This document shows positions 25,122 to 32,275 of a stretch of DNA of 64,000 nucleotides, piece by piece. A program made the translations under genes and the position numbers. This DNA comes from Myxococcus landrumus (GTDB lineage Bacteria > Myxococcota > Myxococcia > Myxococcales > Myxococcaceae): the NCBI RefSeq assembly GCF_017301635.1, contig NZ_CP071091.1, positions 4,414,001-4,478,000 on the forward strand, read 5' to 3'. The notes beneath the pieces are model-generated. The model made no database searches and was not told the origin of the DNA. It saw only the letters and a program-made list of their open reading frames with translations. Numbering within the stretch: position 1 is the first letter of the stretch; every line of letters starts with the position of its first letter.

Positions 25122-27383
25122 TCACCACTGCTGGACGGGCGTCGTCTTGAATCCCCACTTGTTGTTGCCGTGTTGCCCGAAGAGGTTGAGCCCCCAGGCC
25201 CAGACGGCGCCATCCGGCGTCATCGCCAGCGAGTGGCGCGCGCCCGCGGACAGGGCCACCACGCCCGCGGGAGCACGCACGCGAACCGGCAGCGGCCGGC
25301 CCGTCATCGTCCCATCTCCCAGTTCGCCCTCGGAGTTGCTGCCCCAGGCCCAGAGCGTGCCGTCGGACTTCAACATCAACGAGTGCCGGTCACCCGCCGC
25401 CAGGGCCGTTGCCCCCGTGACGCCCTGCACCTGGACAGGCAGGGTCCGCGTGGTCCCCGTGCCATCTCCCAACTGGGCCGCGTCGTTGCGCCCCCAGGTC
25501 CACACCGCGCCGCCCGTCCTCACCACCAGCGAGTGGTCCGAGCCCGTCGCGATGGAGAGCACACCGGTGAGGTTCACCAGGACAGGAGAGAGCTTGCGGA
25601 GGACCGAGCCGTCTCCCAACTGGCCATACGAGTTGTTGCCCCAGGACCAGAGCGTGCCGTTCGTCTTCAGGGCGAGCACATGGTCCGCGCCGGGCGCCGT
25701 CGCCACGGCCTTCACTCCGGTGAAGTTGGGCACCGGCGCGGGGGTCGTCCGGCCCGTCGTTGTTCCATCCCCCAGTGAGCCATAGCTGTTGCGCCCCCAG
25801 GCCCAGAGCGTGCCGTCCGACTTCAGCGCCAGCGAGAACCCATCCCCCGCGGCCACGGCCGTCACACCGGTGAGCCCCGGGACCTGGAGGGGAACCAGGC
25901 TCGCGGTGGTGCTCCCATCTCCGAGCTGTCCGGACCCGTTGTTGCCCCAGGCCCAGACCGTCCCATCCGACTTCGCCGCGAGCGCATGGTTCGCCCCCGC
26001 GGCGTGGGAGACAACATCCGTGAGCCCCACGGCCTGGGTGGGTACCGCGCGCTGGGTCCCCACGCCATCGCCCAGCTGTCCGCTGCCGTTCCGCCCGGCG
26101 CCCCAGACGGTGCCATCCGCCTTCAACACCAGCGTCTCATACAAACCGCCCACGGGCCGAAGCGCGCCGGTGAACTGGGTGGCGACGGCCACGGCGGAGT
26201 CCGGCCGGGTGACGTTCGCATATTGATACGCATCATGGAGACCCCAGGCCCAGGCGGTGCCGTCCTGCTTGATGGCCATTGAGTGGTAGCGGCCCACGCC
26301 CAGCGCGGCCACGTTCGTGAGGCCCGGTAGCTGCGTGGGCAGGTACTTGATGCCGCCCGAGCCTTCGCCCAGCTGACCGTAGTTGTTGTAGCCCCAGCCC
26401 CAGAGGGTGCCGTCCGTCTTCAACGCCACCGTGTAGTGCTCCCCCGAGTCCACGAACGCGACCTGGTTGATGCCGGGAACCTGGGTGGGCGTCAGCTGCC
26501 GGATGGGCGCGCCCTGTCCAAGCCCGAGCACACCCCAGTCATTGCGGCCCCAGACCCAGACGGTTCCATCCGACTTCACCGCCATCACATGGGAGTGTCC
26601 CGCCATCAGGAACACCACACCCGTGAGACCTGGGACCTGCGCGGGCGTGAGCCGGTCCGTCAGCGTCCCGTTCCCCAGCTCTCCGTCCGTGTTGTCGCCC
26701 CAGGTCCAGACGGTTCCGTCCGCCTTGAGCGCCGCCGAGAAGTCATAGCCAGCCGACACCGAGGTCACCAGGGAGAGCCCCAGTGTGCGCACGGGCGCAA
26801 GCCGCTGGGTGGTCGTCCCATCCCCGAGCTGGCCGTCGGTGTTCCTGCCCCACGCCCAGACGGTGCCATCCGACTTCAGCGCCATCGAGTGCATGTAGCC
26901 GCCCGAAACGGACGACACGCCAGAGAGGCCCGGCACCGGGACAGGCGACCAACGGCTGAGGGTCGTCCCATCACCCAATTGTCCGTAGGTGTTGTACCCC
27001 CAGACCCACAGCGAGCCGTCCGCCCTCCGCGCCATCGAGTAGTTGCCTCGCCCCGCCTTCACCGCCGTCACGCTGGTGAGGTTGGGAACCTGGGCGGGCG
27101 TCGACCGGTGGTTGTGTGTCCCATCCCCCAGCTCACCTCCGTAGTTGGTGCCCCAGGACCACACGGTTCCGTCTGACTTCAACCACAGGGTGTGGGACTC
27201 CAATGACAGCGTGTCCTGCGCGGCCAGCCTCGCGGACTGCGTCGTTGCCTCCTCCGGTGGAGGCACGGCCACTTCGCCACCGGGGAACGGCTCGGCGCCA
27301 CCACACCCCACCCCCGCGACCATCACACACACCCGCCAGACTGCCCTGACGACAGAGGACACGCCTTGCTTCCTTGCGCTCAT
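25122..27383 (-). CDS. RCC1-repeat lipoprotein, 14 repeats
   Basis: Protein of 753 residues from ATG 27383 with an AGGAGGAG binding site. The signal ends in VAGVGC (lipid Cys at about residue 27). From about residue 60 to the end there are 14 RCC1-type repeats of about 50 residues, each with ALKSDGTVWAWG followed by GQLGDGT; repeat 7 is degenerate (AWGLHDAYQYANVTRP) and the last is shortened. Fourteen repeats would make two seven-bladed propellers. In myxobacteria and other predators such proteins are abundant at the surface, but the ligand is unknown. It is monocistronic. Confidence 0.9.
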   Translation of the reverse strand: MSARKQGVSSVVRAVWRVCVMVAGVGCGGAEPFPGGEVAVPPPEEATTQSARLAAQDTLSLESHTLWLKSDGTVWSWGTNYGGELGDGTHNHRSTPAQVPNLTSVTAVKAGRGNYSMARRADGSLWVWGYNTYGQLGDGTTLSRWSPVPVPGLSGVSSVSGGYMHSMALKSDGTVWAWGRNTDGQLGDGTTTQRLAPVRTLGLSLVTSVSAGYDFSAALKADGTVWTWGDNTDGELGNGTLTDRLTPAQVPGLTGVVFLMAGHSHVMAVKSDGTVWVWGRNDWGVLGLGQGAPIRQLTPTQVPGINQVAFVDSGEHYTVALKTDGTLWGWGYNNYGQLGEGSGGIKYLPTQLPGLTNVAALGVGRYHSMAIKQDGTAWAWGLHDAYQYANVTRPDSAVAVATQFTGALRPVGGLYETLVLKADGTVWGAGRNGSGQLGDGVGTQRAVPTQAVGLTDVVSHAAGANHALAAKSDGTVWAWGNNGSGQLGDGSTTASLVPLQVPGLTGVTAVAAGDGFSLALKSDGTLWAWGRNSYGSLGDGTTTGRTTPAPVPNFTGVKAVATAPGADHVLALKTNGTLWSWGNNSYGQLGDGSVLRKLSPVLVNLTGVLSIATGSDHSLVVRTGGAVWTWGRNDAAQLGDGTGTTRTLPVQVQGVTGATALAAGDRHSLMLKSDGTLWAWGSNSEGELGDGTMTGRPLPVRVRAPAGVVALSAGARHSLAMTPDGAVWAWGLNLFGQHGNNKWGFKTTPVQQW

Positions 27384-27459
27384 GGACTCCTCCTGGAGGT
27401 ACGACGGCTCCTTTCGTAGCCCAGTTGCATATCCAGGAGAAACTGGCTCTCTGATTATT

Positions 27460-28011
27460 CTACATATGCGGCTTATGTGAGTTGACGTGTTGAAGGACCT
27501 GTTTCGCGCGAGCGCGCGGAGAGCCTTCGACGACGAGCACCTCGACGCCGAGCGCGTACGGGTCATCGAGGAGGAGCGCCCTCAGCGCCTCGTCCACCGC
27601 GAGGCGCAGGTCCTCGTCTTCCGAAGAGGAGAGCGCAATCCGGTCCGGCTGCTCAATCCCCACCCACACAATCAAATCCAACGACTGGAGGGCGGCGCGG
27701 ACGCGGGGCAGCCATGAATCCAGATCGAAGGCCTCGGAGTCCTCATGGGCTTGCAGGTAGCCGATGAAGTCCACGGGGCAGCGGTCGAACAACACATCCG
27801 CCCCAGTCTCCGTGTCGCCCAGGTTGTCGATGGACCGGGAGAGCTGGGCCTCGAAGTCCTCGACGGAGGGGGGCGACGCGAACTCGTAGCCCTCTTCCTC
27901 CATCTCGAGATAGGGCTCGTCCACCGTCGCGTAGGTGGGGAGCAGGTCGGAGAGTTCTTCGACGAGGGTGGTCTTCCCCACGCGGTGGGTGCCGGAGAAT
28001 GCGATGCGCAT
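27460..28011 (-). CDS. P-loop ATPase/kinase (AAA_28-like)
   Basis: Protein of 183 residues. The N-terminus holds a Walker A motif GTHRVGKTT (residues 7-15), and DVLFDRCPVDFIGYL matches the DRxxxD segment of nucleoside/NMN-kinase-like P-loop proteins (AAA_28). It should phosphorylate a small substrate with ATP in the cytoplasm; the substrate is unknown. It starts 12 bases after the GST stop, so the two are probably co-transcribed. Confidence 0.7.
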   Translation of the reverse strand: MRIAFSGTHRVGKTTLVEELSDLLPTYATVDEPYLEMEEEGYEFASPPSVEDFEAQLSRSIDNLGDTETGADVLFDRCPVDFIGYLQAHEDSEAFDLDSWLPRVRAALQSLDLIVWVGIEQPDRIALSSSEDEDLRLAVDEALRALLLDDPYALGVEVLVVEGSPRARAKQVLQHVNSHKPHM

Positions 28012-28022
28012 GCGCGAGCGTT

Positions 28023-28778
28023 CTATCCCGTGACGCGTGGCTCGTGGCGGACCAGATGGGCTGTCATCAGACGTGCGCGCCATTGGAGCAGGTCGGAGAA
28101 CTCCGCCGCCAAGGCCGCATCGCTCCAGCAGCGGCGCGCCGCGGGGCCCAGCGGTGGCTGGATGGACGCGGCCGGAGCGAGGGCCTCCAGCACCACGACC
28201 ATGGTGATGTCGGCATAGGTGAAGTGGCCGAACAGGTGCTCGCCGCCCGCGTCACGCAGGCCGGCACGGGTCCGCTCCAGCGCGTGTCGAAGGGAGCCGG
28301 GCACCACCAGGTCGCGATACTTGCGGTCGAGTCGACGCGCGGCGTCGCGGGCGATGAACCGCAGGGGACGGCGGAGCACCCGAGGGAGAATCGCGGCGGA
28401 GGCCTCGTCGAGCGCCTCCGGGTCCGACAGCGTGCGGAGCACCACGCGGGTCCGAGCTTCGGCGAGCGCGGCCTCGCTGAGGGTGTTCCAGGAGGCCATC
28501 GCGTCGAAATCGCCGAGCCGGCCGTCACCCGCCTGACGCGCGGCGAAGCGAGCGATGTCCCAAGAGCCTCGCACGACCTCCGCGCCCGCGAGCAGCACGG
28601 GCACCGACACCGTGCCCGACCATTGCCGCATGCGCCAGCGAAGCCACGGCTCGCTCAGCGTGGGGACGTACTCGCGATAGGCGAACGCGACGCCGCAATA
28701 CTCCAAGGCCCACCGAGCCTTCTGCGTCCAGGGAGAAAAGGCTTCGCCGACCAGCGTGGGGACGACGGCATGCGGCAT
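28023..28778 (-). CDS. Glutathione S-transferase family protein
   Basis: Protein of 251 residues. The N-terminal 80 residues form a thioredoxin-like domain (TLVGEAFSPWTQKARWALEY, then VSVPVLLAGAEVVRGSWDIA with the cis-Pro SVPVL motif). The remainder is the all-helical GST domain (HLFGHFTYADITMVVVLEAL, with a Tyr-Ala-Asp in place of the usual S-x-AD). Some members conjugate glutathione to electrophiles; others have non-catalytic roles. It is the first gene of a pair with the kinase-like gene. Confidence 0.82.
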   Translation of the reverse strand: MPHAVVPTLVGEAFSPWTQKARWALEYCGVAFAYREYVPTLSEPWLRWRMRQWSGTVSVPVLLAGAEVVRGSWDIARFAARQAGDGRLGDFDAMASWNTLSEAALAEARTRVVLRTLSDPEALDEASAAILPRVLRRPLRFIARDAARRLDRKYRDLVVPGSLRHALERTRAGLRDAGGEHLFGHFTYADITMVVVLEALAPAASIQPPLGPAARRCWSDAALAAEFSDLLQWRARLMTAHLVRHEPRVTG

Positions 28779-28864: not shown

Positions 28865-30295
28865 TCAGGGCTGCGCCAGCACCTCGGCGGCCGCACGCTC
28901 ACCCGCGCGAATGGCGCCGTCGAGATAGCCACACCAGACTCCCGAGGTCTCAGTGCCCGCCCAGTGGATGCGCCCCGTGGGGGCCTTGAGCGCACTGCCC
29001 CACGACGACATCAGGCCCGGAGGCAGCGGAGAGACGCAGCCCGCGCTCCACGCCTCGCGTGCCCAGTCCTGCTCCAGGTAGTCCCGAGGCGCTCGCGCCT
29101 GCTCGCCAAAGAGCTTCACGACGTCCTCGATGACCCGCGCACGCCGGACCGCCGCGGGCAGCCGCGCCGCCGTGGGACTCACGAAGGCCAACAGGACCCC
29201 CACCGCGCCATCCGCCGGCGTGCTGTCGAACGTCAGCTCCACCACCCCCGAGTCCGTGAAGCCCACCCCCGCGAGCCCCTGGTCTCGCCAGAAGGGACGG
29301 TCGAAGACGAGGTGCACCTTGAAGCCAGCACTCGCGCCCCAGTACCGCTGGAGGGCCTCGCGCTGGCGCGGCAGCTCGGGCGTGAAGTCGATGCGCTGCA
29401 CGTCCCTGGGCATCATCGCGACGATGGCGCGGCGTGCGCGCACCAGCCCCGCGTCGGAGTGAATCACCACGGAGTCCGTGCACCAGCCCTTGATGCGGCG
29501 AACGGGCGCCCCCAACACGACGCTGCCCGCGAGCTCCTCCGCGAGGCGCAGCGAGAGTGCCTGTGCACCGCCCTCCAACCGGTACTGCTGCGCCCCCTCG
29601 TTGAGCTCCGCGAAGCCTCCCGCGGAATGCAGGTAGAAGAGGAACCAGAGCAGGGAGACGTTCTCGGGGCTGGCGCTCAACGTCGTTCCAATCGTCCCGG
29701 CCACCGCGCCCCGCGCCTCTTCCCCGACATTGTTCGCGTTCAGCCAGTCCGCGACGCTCTGGGCATCCAGCAGCGCGGCCCCTGGAGCACTCCATGGCGC
29801 TTCGAGCGGGACCTGCCGGGCGAGGTTCTCCAGCACCGCCTGGAGGTGCAGTGTCTCCGCGCCCGGAACCTCCTTCTCGAACGTGACCCGCGTGCCGTTG
29901 ACGTGGGCGACGCGCAGTCCGGTCTCGTGCTGAGCAATCCGCGGGATTCCCAGCTCATCCGCGAGCGCCATCACGCGCGTCTGGCTCCCGCCCACCCACT
30001 GTCCACCGCCGTCGACCTGGCGATTCCCCACGGTGCGCTGGTTCAAGGTGCGGCCACCCACCCGGTCCCTCGCATCGAGCACCACGACACTGCACCCAGC
30101 ACGAGCGAGCATCCGTGCCGCACTCAAGCCAGACAGCCCCGCGCCCACGACGGCGACATCGACCTCCCGGACGCGGGGATGCGCGAGCCCCTCGCGACTT
30201 CCCAGCACGGAGACCGCACAGGTCGCCGCAGGCCACTTCAGCAAGGACCGCCGTGAAATCGAAACCAGGGCACCCATCCGATTGAGGCGCTTCAT
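28865..30295 (-). CDS. Flavin monoamine oxidase family protein, Tat-exported
   Basis: Protein of 476 residues. The start at 30295 has GGGAG five bases upstream. SISRRSLLKW is a twin-arginine signal, so the folded flavoprotein should be exported. VAVVGAGLSGLSAARML is the FAD Rossmann motif, VGGRTLNQ the second FAD motif, and IHWAGTETSGVWCGYLDGAI the C-terminal FAD-binding segment of amine oxidases. It should oxidise a primary or secondary amine to an aldehyde, giving peroxide. A palindrome identical to that before the FadR-type gene sits just upstream, so repression by that regulator is likely. Confidence 0.88.
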   Translation of the reverse strand: MKRLNRMGALVSISRRSLLKWPAATCAVSVLGSREGLAHPRVREVDVAVVGAGLSGLSAARMLARAGCSVVVLDARDRVGGRTLNQRTVGNRQVDGGGQWVGGSQTRVMALADELGIPRIAQHETGLRVAHVNGTRVTFEKEVPGAETLHLQAVLENLARQVPLEAPWSAPGAALLDAQSVADWLNANNVGEEARGAVAGTIGTTLSASPENVSLLWFLFYLHSAGGFAELNEGAQQYRLEGGAQALSLRLAEELAGSVVLGAPVRRIKGWCTDSVVIHSDAGLVRARRAIVAMMPRDVQRIDFTPELPRQREALQRYWGASAGFKVHLVFDRPFWRDQGLAGVGFTDSGVVELTFDSTPADGAVGVLLAFVSPTAARLPAAVRRARVIEDVVKLFGEQARAPRDYLEQDWAREAWSAGCVSPLPPGLMSSWGSALKAPTGRIHWAGTETSGVWCGYLDGAIRAGERAAAEVLAQP

Positions 30296-30307
30296 CAGGA
30301 CTCCCAT

Positions 30308-30320
30308 CTTGGTTACCAAG
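30308..30320. promoter_or_regulatory. FadR-type operator at the amine oxidase gene
   Basis: CTTGGTTACCAAG, arms TTGGT/ACCAA around one T. The same 13 bases occur upstream of the GntR/FadR gene at 31069-31081. It lies 12 bases before the amine oxidase ATG, overlapping an upstream in-frame ATG, where a bound repressor would block transcription. Confidence 0.75.
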
Positions 30321-30367
30321 TTGAGGAAACAAGCCAATACACACACCGGTGCCGGCCCACACCGGGT

Positions 30368-31054
30368 TCAGCGGGAAGCAGGGGCGAACGTCGGACGAAT
30401 GGTCGCGAGGTAGAAGGGAACCGGGTCCTGGCGCGACAGCAGTTGCTTGGCGAGCACGTGGTAGAACCAGCGCAGCTCGTCGGCCTTGCCATCGAGCGGC
30501 GCGCTCGGGTCCGCCCAGCGCTCCCACAAGGCCATCTCCATCCGCATGATTTGGTTCCGGCCCATCTCGGTGACGTGCCGCCAGAAGTCCGTATCGAGCT
30601 GGCGGGCCCGGGCCTCGGACGGCTGCGTGGGACACGCCTCGACGAACGCGAGCAAGGCGCGCCGCTCTTCGTCGGTCGCCTTCCGGTGCGCGGCGTCGAG
30701 CATCATCACCACGTACAGGAGCCGGTACTCGACCAGCTCCTCCCGGAGCCGGGCACCGCCGCCCCGGAGACGTGAGCCGTAGCGGAAGAGCAGCTCGAGC
30801 GCCCGGGCATCCGCCGCGGCGACATCGAGCACGCGGGAGGCCCCGCCTTGCCGTGCCTCGACGAGTCCGGCGTCCACCAGCGTGTGCACCGCCTGTCGCG
30901 CGATGATGCGTGACACGCCATGCGTCTCCGCGAGGACTCGCTCCGGAGGAAGAGGGTCCCCCTCCTTGAGCTTGCCGTCGAAGATGGCGATGCACAGCGC
31001 CTCGAGCACCACCTCCGCGGCACGCTGCGGCTTCTGACGGGACGAGCTGGACAC
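30368..31054 (-). CDS. GntR/FadR-family transcriptional regulator
   Basis: Protein of 228 residues from GTG 31054. I chose this start because the operator at 31068-31082 lies upstream of it; the frame continues to 31108 but would translate the operator. Residues 5-75 are the GntR winged helix (GDPLPPERVLAETHGVSRIIARQAVHTL is cut here: key part PPERVLAETHGVSR), and the C-terminal 140 residues are a helical FCD ligand domain. It likely represses itself and the downstream amine oxidase, relieved by an amine or its product; the ligand is inferred. Confidence 0.88.
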   Translation of the reverse strand: MSSSSRQKPQRAAEVVLEALCIAIFDGKLKEGDPLPPERVLAETHGVSRIIARQAVHTLVDAGLVEARQGGASRVLDVAAADARALELLFRYGSRLRGGGARLREELVEYRLLYVVMMLDAAHRKATDEERRALLAFVEACPTQPSEARARQLDTDFWRHVTEMGRNQIMRMEMALWERWADPSAPLDGKADELRWFYHVLAKQLLSRQDPVPFYLATIRPTFAPASR

Positions 31055-31067
31055 GCCGTTATCTCTA

Positions 31068-31082
31068 ACTTGGTTACCAAGT
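31068..31082. promoter_or_regulatory. FadR-type operator at the regulator gene
   Basis: ACTTGGTTACCAAGT, seven-base arms around a central T, 13 bases upstream of the regulator's GTG start. It matches the TGGT-n-ACCA pattern of FadR-subfamily sites and is duplicated before the amine oxidase. Confidence 0.75.
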
Positions 31083-31096
31083 GACGTCAAATCAAT

Positions 31097-31156: not shown

Positions 31157-32098
31157 CTACTTCGCGCTCTTGCCCTTCTTCAGCAGCTTCTGGCCCACGG
31201 TGAAGACAATCACCGTCACGGCGCCAGCGCCCAGGCCCACCGCGGCGTTGAGCAGCATGGACGCAAGCCCGCCCAGGACGCTGCCCACACCCGGCACCGT
31301 CGAGGCCCAGGCGGTGAAGGACTCCTCCGCGTGGTGCAGGCCGGAGATGCCGTGCACGAGGATGCCGCCACCCACCAGGAACATGGCCGCCGTCCCCGCC
31401 ACGGAGAGGAACTTCATCAGCATCGGCGCCGCGCGGAGGATGCCCGCGCCCAGGCTGCGCTGGAAGGAGCCCGTCTGACGGGTGAGGTACAGGCCCGCGT
31501 CGTCCAGCTTCACGATGCCCGCCACCAGCCCATACACGCCCACCGTCATGATGAGCGCGATGCCCACCAGGACCGAGACGCGGGTGGCGAAGGTCGCCGC
31601 CGCCACCGTGCCCAGGGTGATGGCGATGATTTCCGCGGAGAGGATGAAGTCGGTGCGCACCGCACCCTTGATCTTGTCCTTCTCCAACGCCACCAGGTCC
31701 ACGTTCGGATTCGCCAACGCCTCCCGCAGCTCCGCGCGGTGCTCCTGGTCCTCCTCCTCGCTGTGCAGGAACTTGTGCGCCAGCTTCTCGAAGCCCTCGA
31801 AGCAGAGGAACGCACCGCCCACCATCAACAGCGGCGTCACCAGCCAGGGCGCCAGCGCGCTGATGGCCAGCGCCGCGGGCACCAGGATGGCCTTGTTGAC
31901 CAACGAGCCCTTCGCCACCGCCCACACCACCGGCAGCTCGCGGTCCGCGCTCACTCCCGTCACCTGCTGGGCGTTGAGCGCCAGGTCGTCTCCAAGCACG
32001 CCCGCCGTCTTTTTCGCCGCCACCTTCGTCAGGATGGAGACGTCATCCAGGATGGTCGCGATGTCGTCGATGAGCGCAAATAGACTGCTGCCTGCCAT
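31157..32098 (-). CDS. DUF808 (YedI-type) membrane protein
   Basis: Protein of 313 residues from ATG 32098. The start [20 protein letters not shown] and the following stretch [20 protein letters not shown] are the hallmark of the DUF808/YedI family. Seven or so hydrophobic segments follow, and the C-terminus ends with a basic tail (KKGKSAK). It is an inner-membrane protein of unknown function. It stands alone with a strong hairpin after it. Confidence 0.88.
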
Positions 32099-32275
32099 GG
32101 AGATCTTCCGGGCTGAAGGGTGGAACGTCGTCTTGCGACCCTCCTGGATTAGCACACTGGAGCATCCAGGGCACGGGCTCACCTACATCCGCCCCCATGC
32201 ATGGCCCCTGGGGAAACGGAGGCCGCCAGCACGCCTGGCGGCCCCCGACCCACAGCACGCGAAGACGCCGCCGCG

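What the first reader, a model, noticed from the sequence alone, without database searches (positions are those of the whole stretch)
30308..31082. Identical FadR-type operators before the regulator and the amine oxidase
CTTGGTTACCAAG occurs twice within 800 bases, 13 bases before the regulator GTG and 12 bases before the amine oxidase ATG. This defines a small local regulon and fixes the regulator's start downstream of the operator.
Basis: partly seen in the sequence, partly recalled or inferred. Interest (0 to 1): 0.55.

Follow-up and report, generated by a model that had tools for sequence, protein, structure and literature searches.

The report
Self-regulated repressor and amine oxidase pair
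A soil bacterium carries a two-gene unit, a gene switch protein and an amine-oxidising enzyme, each preceded by the same 13-letter site, and the same pair of sites recurs unchanged in distant relatives, which marks them as the likely docking sites of that switch protein.

Summary
Observation confirmed. CTTGGTTACCAAG lies at 30308-30320 and 31069-31081. These are the only two exact copies in the 10.37 Mb genome. The gap to the regulator's GTG is 14 bases, not 13; the gap to the amine oxidase ATG is 12 as stated.

The unit (GntR/FadR-type regulator, then flavin amine oxidase) was found in 8 genomes: 5 of one myxobacterial genus and 3 reached through a Pseudomonas genome, with regulators down to 50% identity. 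Each has exactly two exact CTTGGTWACCAAG sites, both in the unit: 16 of 16. The reading as the regulator's operators is well supported by conservation; no binding was tested.

Site 1 fills the spacer of a promoter-like sequence (TTGAC at a fixed distance upstream, start codon 14-15 bases downstream, 8 of 8), which probably gives a leaderless message. Site 2 shows no promoter above shuffles in 8 of 8, lies just before the ribosome site and, in 6 of 8, follows a terminator-like hairpin. I propose one promoter with two locks.

The half-site spacing (TGGT-1-ACCA) differs from the 2-3 reported for FadR-type sites.

The parts
31069..31081 (.). Operator 1, CTTGGTTACCAAG (on the gene strand ACTTGGTAACCAAGT, a 15-base palindrome)
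   Evidence: exact in 8 of 8 genomes, flanking A and T also 8 of 8
31085..31090 (-). -35-like element TTGACG of the regulator promoter; TTGAC in 8 of 8 at the same distance from operator 1
31062..31067 (-). proposed -10 element TAGAGA, 17 bases from the -35; ends 7 bases before the GTG
   Evidence: weak in this genome (no hit in the tool's scan); the scan does hit this promoter in 4 of 8 genomes
30368..31054 (-). GntR/FadR-type regulator, 228 aa, GTG start, no Shine-Dalgarno seen, message probably leaderless
   Evidence: PF00392 1.5e-13; FCD domain below cut-off (21.3 against 24.3 bits); start choice
30346..30365 (-). terminator-like hairpin between regulator and operator 2, with an interrupted T-run
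   Evidence: a hairpin at this place is found in 6 of 8 genomes, not in G065 or G071
30308..30320 (.). Operator 2, CTTGGTTACCAAG, 12 bases before the amine oxidase ATG; no promoter found around it
30301..30305 (-). Shine-Dalgarno GGGAG of the amine oxidase (AGGAG, GGAGG or GGAGA in relatives)
28865..30295 (-). flavin amine oxidase with an SRRSLLKW twin-arginine-like signal
   Evidence: PF01593 5.7e-60; best solved relative 8p84, monoamine oxidase, 2.4e-93
28023..28778 (-). glutathione S-transferase-like gene downstream; adjacent in some relatives only, so not part of the core unit
   Evidence: PF13409 2.2e-11; found next to the unit in G072 and G069, not in the fetched stretches of G071, G065, G096, G549 or G572

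Best explanation
The two sites are operators of the adjacent GntR/FadR-type regulator, which acts as a dimeric, autoregulating repressor of a self-contained unit (regulator, then flavin amine oxidase, probably exported). At operator 1 the repressor sits in the spacer between -35 and -10 of its own promoter and blocks RNA polymerase; the message begins at or within a base or two of the start codon (leaderless). At operator 2, immediately before the amine oxidase ribosome site and in most members after a terminator-like hairpin, a second dimer closes the amine oxidase, most likely as a roadblock to polymerase reading through from the regulator gene; a cryptic second promoter is nearly as likely. 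An inducer, probably the amine substrate or its aldehyde, releases both. Shown by sequence: the sites, their exclusivity, conservation and geometry. Inferred: binding and repression, leaderless start (about 0.7), roadblock rather than own promoter (about 0.5), inducer.
For: Two exact sites per genome, both in the unit, 16 of 16 in 8 of 8 genomes. Regulators are 50-66% identical between the three lineages, yet the site is the only 13-mer shared by both upstream regions of all 8. The regulator was found in 5 of 96 family genomes at E up to 1e-20; the amine oxidase orthologue (81-92% in the other four) is in the same 5 of 27 genus genomes. TTGAC lies at the same distance before operator 1 in 8 of 8; start codon 14-15 bases after operator 1 and 10-12 after operator 2 in 8 of 8. 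In scans of all 8 regions the tool reports 4 promoters in total, and all 4 straddle operator 1 (G549, G096, G065, G572). Residues at FadR DNA-contact positions (R39, S48, R49, I50, R53, Q69, G70) are invariant (contact positions from PMC4494728 Table 1; position mapping mine). In the three Pseudomonas-group members operator 2 reads as the reverse complement of operator 1, as expected for a symmetric dimer site and not for an RNA signal. At operator 2 no promoter exceeds shuffles in 8 of 8 (0.22-0.89 of shuffles as good).
Against: No binding or expression data. The promoter at operator 1 is weak: the tool's scan misses it in 4 of 8, this genome included, and in my looser test 2-8% of shuffles score as high, 5 of 8 being under 5%. 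Absence of a promoter motif at operator 2 is weak evidence in high-GC genomes. The hairpin before operator 2 is missing in 2 of 8 by the scan, and shuffles give 0.3-0.9 such hits per region. The 8 genomes are three lineages, not eight independent cases. One-mismatch sites outside the unit number 14 in the 8 genomes against 32 matches for the reversed control, but in G549 and G572 they exceed it (3 against 2, 2 against 0), and I did not look at what they precede, so a slightly wider regulon there is not excluded. The effector domain model is poor (mean pLDDT 59.5). GntR proteins can also activate.
Confidence: 0.78

Rival explanations
1. Two separately repressed promoters: operator 2 overlaps a cryptic amine oxidase promoter, so the repressor blocks initiation at both places.
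For: A terminator-like hairpin between the genes in 6 of 8 genomes would separate the transcripts; the amine oxidase has its own Shine-Dalgarno.
Against: No -35/-10 above shuffles near operator 2 in 8 of 8, whereas operator 1 has one at near-fixed geometry; none reported there by the tool's scans.
Confidence: 0.42
2. The two operators are bridged by a tetramer or a dimer pair into a DNA loop over the regulator gene.
For: Site-to-site distances are 759-762 in seven genomes and 750 in G096, about one helical turn less. A tetrameric GntR protein is reported (PMC7797058, title and abstract start only).
Against: Only three lineages; the agreement could be chance. Most FadR-type proteins are dimers (recalled).
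Confidence: 0.12
3. The palindromes act as RNA hairpins in the message.
For: Operator 2 lies in the likely leader and could form a stem of about 5 base pairs (read from the sequence; not folded).
Against: Operator 1 lies upstream of the likely start, beside a -35-like element; the central base on the gene strand differs between lineages at operator 2.
Confidence: 0.02
4. Chance or shared-ancestry repeats without function.
For: The five myxobacterial copies are closely related (82-96% regulator identity).
Against: Exact survival where regulators are 50-60% identical and no 6-mer outside the site and its next base is shared in the upstream regions of all 8; no exact copy elsewhere in the 8 genomes.
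Confidence: 0.02

Closest known systems
GntR family, FadR subfamily regulators (PdhR, LldR, GlcC, FadR, UxuR groups)
   Same: GntR winged helix (PF00392) in 8 of 8; helical C-terminal domain with FCD resemblance (above cut-off in 1 of 8, below it in 5, none in 2); palindrome with TGGT/ACCA boxes like the TKGT/ACMA boxes of PMC4494728
   Different: GT to AC distance is 1 base against 3 (or 2) in the FadR groups that PMC4494728 lists; invariant Ile where Asn or Thr is frequent; no invariant histidine in the C-terminal domain, so the usual FCD metal site (recalled) is unlikely
E. coli FadR (PDB 1e2x, 1hw1) and the 9wfi chain labelled Rv0494 / fatty acid metabolism regulator
   Same: 9wfi is the best solved match of the profile, E 5e-14, positions 7-164; 1e2x E 2.9e-5
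   Different: the neighbour gene is an amine oxidase, not a fatty acid gene; the site spacing differs (FadR: 3)
Monoamine oxidase / putrescine oxidase family (PDB 8p84, 2yg7, MAO A and B)
   Same: near full-length match, E 2.4e-93 to 8p84; Lys326, Cys420 and Tyr457 kept in 8 of 8
   Different: the Tyr that follows the Cys in 8p84 and 2yg7 is Val421 in 8 of 8; twin-arginine-like signal in 6 of 8

Membership tests
GntR family | N-terminal GntR winged-helix domain (PF00392) above cut-off | tested here: met
   50.6 bits against cut-off 27; 49.0-60.5 bits in the other 7
FadR subfamily of GntR | all-helical C-terminal domain of FCD/FadR type | tested here: inconclusive
   FCD cut-off 24.3 bits: window protein 21.3; G096 31.1 passes; G072, G069, G549, G572 20.7-22.6; G071 and G065 no hit at E up to 0.1. 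Model helical but low confidence. Profile matches to FadR and NanR chains run into the C-terminal domain
FadR subfamily of GntR | operator with GT to AC distance of 2 or 3 bases (a tendency of the subfamily, not strictly defining) | tested here: not met
   TGGT-W-ACCA, distance 1, in 16 of 16 sites against PMC4494728; the other reading, TTGG-3-CCAA, keeps the distance but breaks the TKGT box
FadR subfamily of GntR | FCD metal ligands (Asp and His residues; recalled; not present in all FadR-subfamily members) | tested here: not met
   no invariant His after residue 57; the residue after F157 is Trp in 8 of 8
Autoregulating repressor | regulator binds its own promoter and lowers transcription | not testable with these tools
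   geometry fits; no binding data
Flavin monoamine oxidase family | PF01593 domain and a conserved Lys near the flavin (role recalled) | tested here: met
   204.3 bits against 19.8; K326 invariant
Flavin monoamine oxidase family | aromatic cage of two tyrosines (recalled from MAO B) | tested here: not met
   Y457 kept, the partner position is V421 in 8 of 8

The most novel reading that the evidence does not exclude
A FadR-type regulator that reads a compressed operator (TGGT and ACCA boxes one base apart) and locks a two-gene unit from a single promoter: one dimer stops initiation inside the promoter of a leaderless regulator message, and a second dimer at an identical site stops elongation just before the enzyme gene, so that the enzyme stays off even while the regulator is being made.
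Probability: 0.3. Interest if true: 0.55.

Novelty: new variant of a known kind. Interest (0 to 1): 0.42.

Why it matters
It gives a testable regulator-operator pair with an exact 13-base site, kept across two phyla, for a GntR/FadR-type protein whose site spacing lies outside the spacings given for the subfamily in the comparative study I read (PMC4494728, sections 5 and 9 part 1). That makes it a useful case for how such proteins read DNA, and a candidate sensor for an amine or aldehyde. The substrate of the oxidase, unknown now, could be found by asking what releases the repressor.

Tried and rejected
Wider regulon: beyond the pair, one-mismatch sites number 1 to 3 per genome (14 in the 8 genomes), against 0 to 7 matches per genome (32 in all) for the reversed control; in G549 and G572 they exceed the control. 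They were not followed up, except that of the two in this genome one lies in an ORF that I recognise as dnaX-like and the other among overlapping ORFs. A single exact site in G066, where the search found no regulator, lies inside an unrelated ORF. Sites with G or C at the centre occur singly in 8 family genomes in which that search found no regulator, and once in G069 besides its pair; I took them as chance, since the reversed pattern occurs in most genomes of that search.

Wider spread: 1 of 369 class genomes (G096 itself), 1 of 398 phylum genomes by the promoter-plus-site pattern (G096), 2 of 378 in a set that overlaps that (G549 and G572). Each protein search scored only the best candidates per genome (7 to 59 by the columns shown), so distant relatives can have been missed. 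Plasmids: 91 records matched, 0 of them over 80% of the regulator. The genome-contig scan gave 2 loci.

Empty insertion site: a DUF808 gene like the upstream neighbour is in 26 of 27 genus genomes, but the 22 loci without the unit show none of the other neighbours I tested, so no empty site could be defined. In G065 unit and DUF808 lie on different contigs.

Structure: the regulator model had mean pLDDT 59.5, so I ran no fold search on it. In one search one genome (G071) was printed in the wrong orientation; correct this, and only its site distance is used. Searches were translations in wrong frames; replace them.

Literature: searches for the site strings (33 papers, 28 listed, together with GntR and FadR: 192 papers, 12 listed, with no site string in any of the 12) showed no title that ties them to a GntR protein; none was opened for its site string, two bacterial ones (PMC12385110, PMC7142922) included. 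Searches for GntR with amine oxidase led to PMC8567248, of which I read passages: in these the regulator and the oxidase bear distant locus numbers. PMC4494728: abstract, passages, section 5, section 9 part 1 of 2. PMC7797058 and PMC10310618: listing with abstract start only.

Full report
Observation. The sequence CTTGGTTACCAAG occurs at 30308-30320 and 31069-31081. A search of the whole genome (10,367,529 bases, one contig) with up to two mismatches found no third exact copy.

Genes. Both genes are on the minus strand. The regulator (228 aa) has a GntR domain (50.6 bits, cut-off 27) and an FCD match below its cut-off (21.3 against 24.3). Of the seven relatives, one passes the FCD cut-off (G096, 31.1 bits), four lie below it (20.7-22.6) and two have no FCD hit at E up to 0.1. 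The profile of the eight matches solved FadR-type chains, best 9wfi at 5e-14, over positions 7-164. The enzyme is a flavin amine oxidase (PF01593, 5.7e-60), nearest to the solved monoamine oxidase 8p84 and to putrescine oxidase. Its N-terminus carries a twin-arginine-like motif, visible in 6 of 8 (the Pfam TAT model hits 2 of 8 at E up to 0.1).

Relatives. The regulator was found in 5 of 96 genomes of the family (E up to 1e-20), all in one genus of 27 genomes, and in 5 of 195 of the phylum (E up to 1e-25), the same five. One of them is Myxococcus sp. CA023. A named scan returned a Pseudomonas metagenome-assembled genome with a regulator 62% identical, and a search of 398 genomes of its genus gave two more at 51-52%. 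In all eight the regulator is followed by the amine oxidase. Among the 27 genus genomes an amine oxidase orthologue (81-92%) is in just the five with the regulator; seven others hold a 44-46% homologue (E up to 1e-80).

Conservation of the sites. Each of the eight genomes has exactly two exact CTTGGTWACCAAG sites, both in the unit. One-mismatch sites elsewhere number 1-3 per genome, 14 in all, against 32 matches for the reversed control (0-7 per genome); in G549 and G572 they exceed the control and were not examined. I compared the 100 bases before the regulator and the whole gap before the amine oxidase without a preset motif: the site is the only 13-mer common to both sets in all eight; the other 13-mers common to the first set are the same palindrome shifted by one base, and the only common 5-mer outside it is TTGAC. 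The gap between the genes is otherwise not alike between the myxobacterial and Pseudomonas-group members, though it is 70-72 bases in all. These are three lineages, not eight independent cases: the five myxobacterial regulators are 82-96% identical and two of the others 95%.

Architecture. At site 1, TTGAC[GCT] stands at the same place in 8 of 8, and the site fills the spacer (16-18 bases) to a -10-like hexamer that ends 6 to 8 bases before the start codon. Scans of the eight regions report four promoters in all, and each straddles site 1: G549, G096, G065 and G572; none in G000, G072, G069 or G071. No Shine-Dalgarno is visible before the regulator, so the message is probably leaderless; this is an inference. 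At site 2 a Shine-Dalgarno lies between site and start in 8 of 8, and the best promoter is matched by 22-89% of mononucleotide shuffles, against 2-8% for site 1. A terminator-like hairpin stands between the genes in 6 of 8: with a clean T-run in G096, G549 and G572, with an interrupted one in G000, G072 and G069; none was reported there in G065 and G071, and shuffles yield 0.3-0.9 hits per region.

Reading. The simplest account is a dimeric autorepressor. At site 2 the central base on the gene strand is A in the myxobacteria and T in the Pseudomonas group, with the rest unchanged; that fits a symmetric protein dimer and speaks against an RNA signal. Because site 2 has no promoter of its own that I can see, I favour one promoter with a second, elongation-blocking site; roadblocking by DNA-bound proteins is a known mechanism in general (PMC10310618, listing and abstract start only). 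A cryptic second promoter is nearly as likely.

DNA recognition. PMC4494728 gives a GT to AC distance of 3 bases for most FadR-subfamily sites and 2 for several groups. Here it is 1 if TGGT/ACCA are taken as the boxes. The residue at the position that this paper links to the central bases (position 39, Thr46 in FadR; Asn and Thr frequent) is an invariant Ile50 here (mapping of positions mine). This is a coherent but untested sign of changed recognition. The other alignment (TTGG-3-CCAA) keeps the distance and breaks the box.

Effector. The C-terminal domain has no invariant histidine and has Trp after F157 in 8 of 8, so the metal-dependent binding of many FCD proteins (recalled) is unlikely. 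Invariant aromatic and acidic residues (E109, Y110, Y114, W158, E173, W177, W180, W196, F197) would suit an amine or aromatic ligand; this is speculation, since the structural model is poor.

Verdict. A real, well-conserved site pair that most likely serves a local GntR/FadR-type regulator. The general kind is well known; the spacing and the two unequal sites make it a modest variant.

Noticed in passing
L044 (G549) and L045 (G572): In two genomes of the Pseudomonas genus group the unit lies near ORFs that look like trpB, trpA and a LysR-type trpI; in L040 it is next to a DAHP-synthase-like ORF (names recalled from the translations). Whether this hints at an aromatic amine substrate is open.
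   Followed up: no
window 30296-30367 and the matching gaps in 7 relatives: The gap between regulator and amine oxidase is 70-72 bases in all eight genomes although its sequence, apart from the site, is not alike between the lineages.
   Followed up: partly
sites 30308-30320 and 31069-31081 and relatives: Site-to-site distance is 759-762 in seven genomes and 750 in G096, about one helical turn less.
   Followed up: partly
L044:3441-4838 and L045:3304-4701: The amine oxidases of G549 and G572 lack the twin-arginine-like motif seen in the other six, so the enzyme may be cytoplasmic there.
   Followed up: no
G549 and G572, one-mismatch sites listed: Three and two one-mismatch sites outside the unit, more than the reversed control gives there (2 and 0); possible extra targets, not examined.
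   Followed up: no
window 25122-27566: Large ORF with many repeats of the form SDGTVWAWG..GQLGDG, resembling RCC1-type repeats (resemblance recalled), also found near the unit in G072 and G069.
   Followed up: no
window 31157-32113: DUF808 membrane-protein gene directly upstream, with a homologue in 26 of 27 genus genomes, whether or not the two-gene unit is there.
   Followed up: partly
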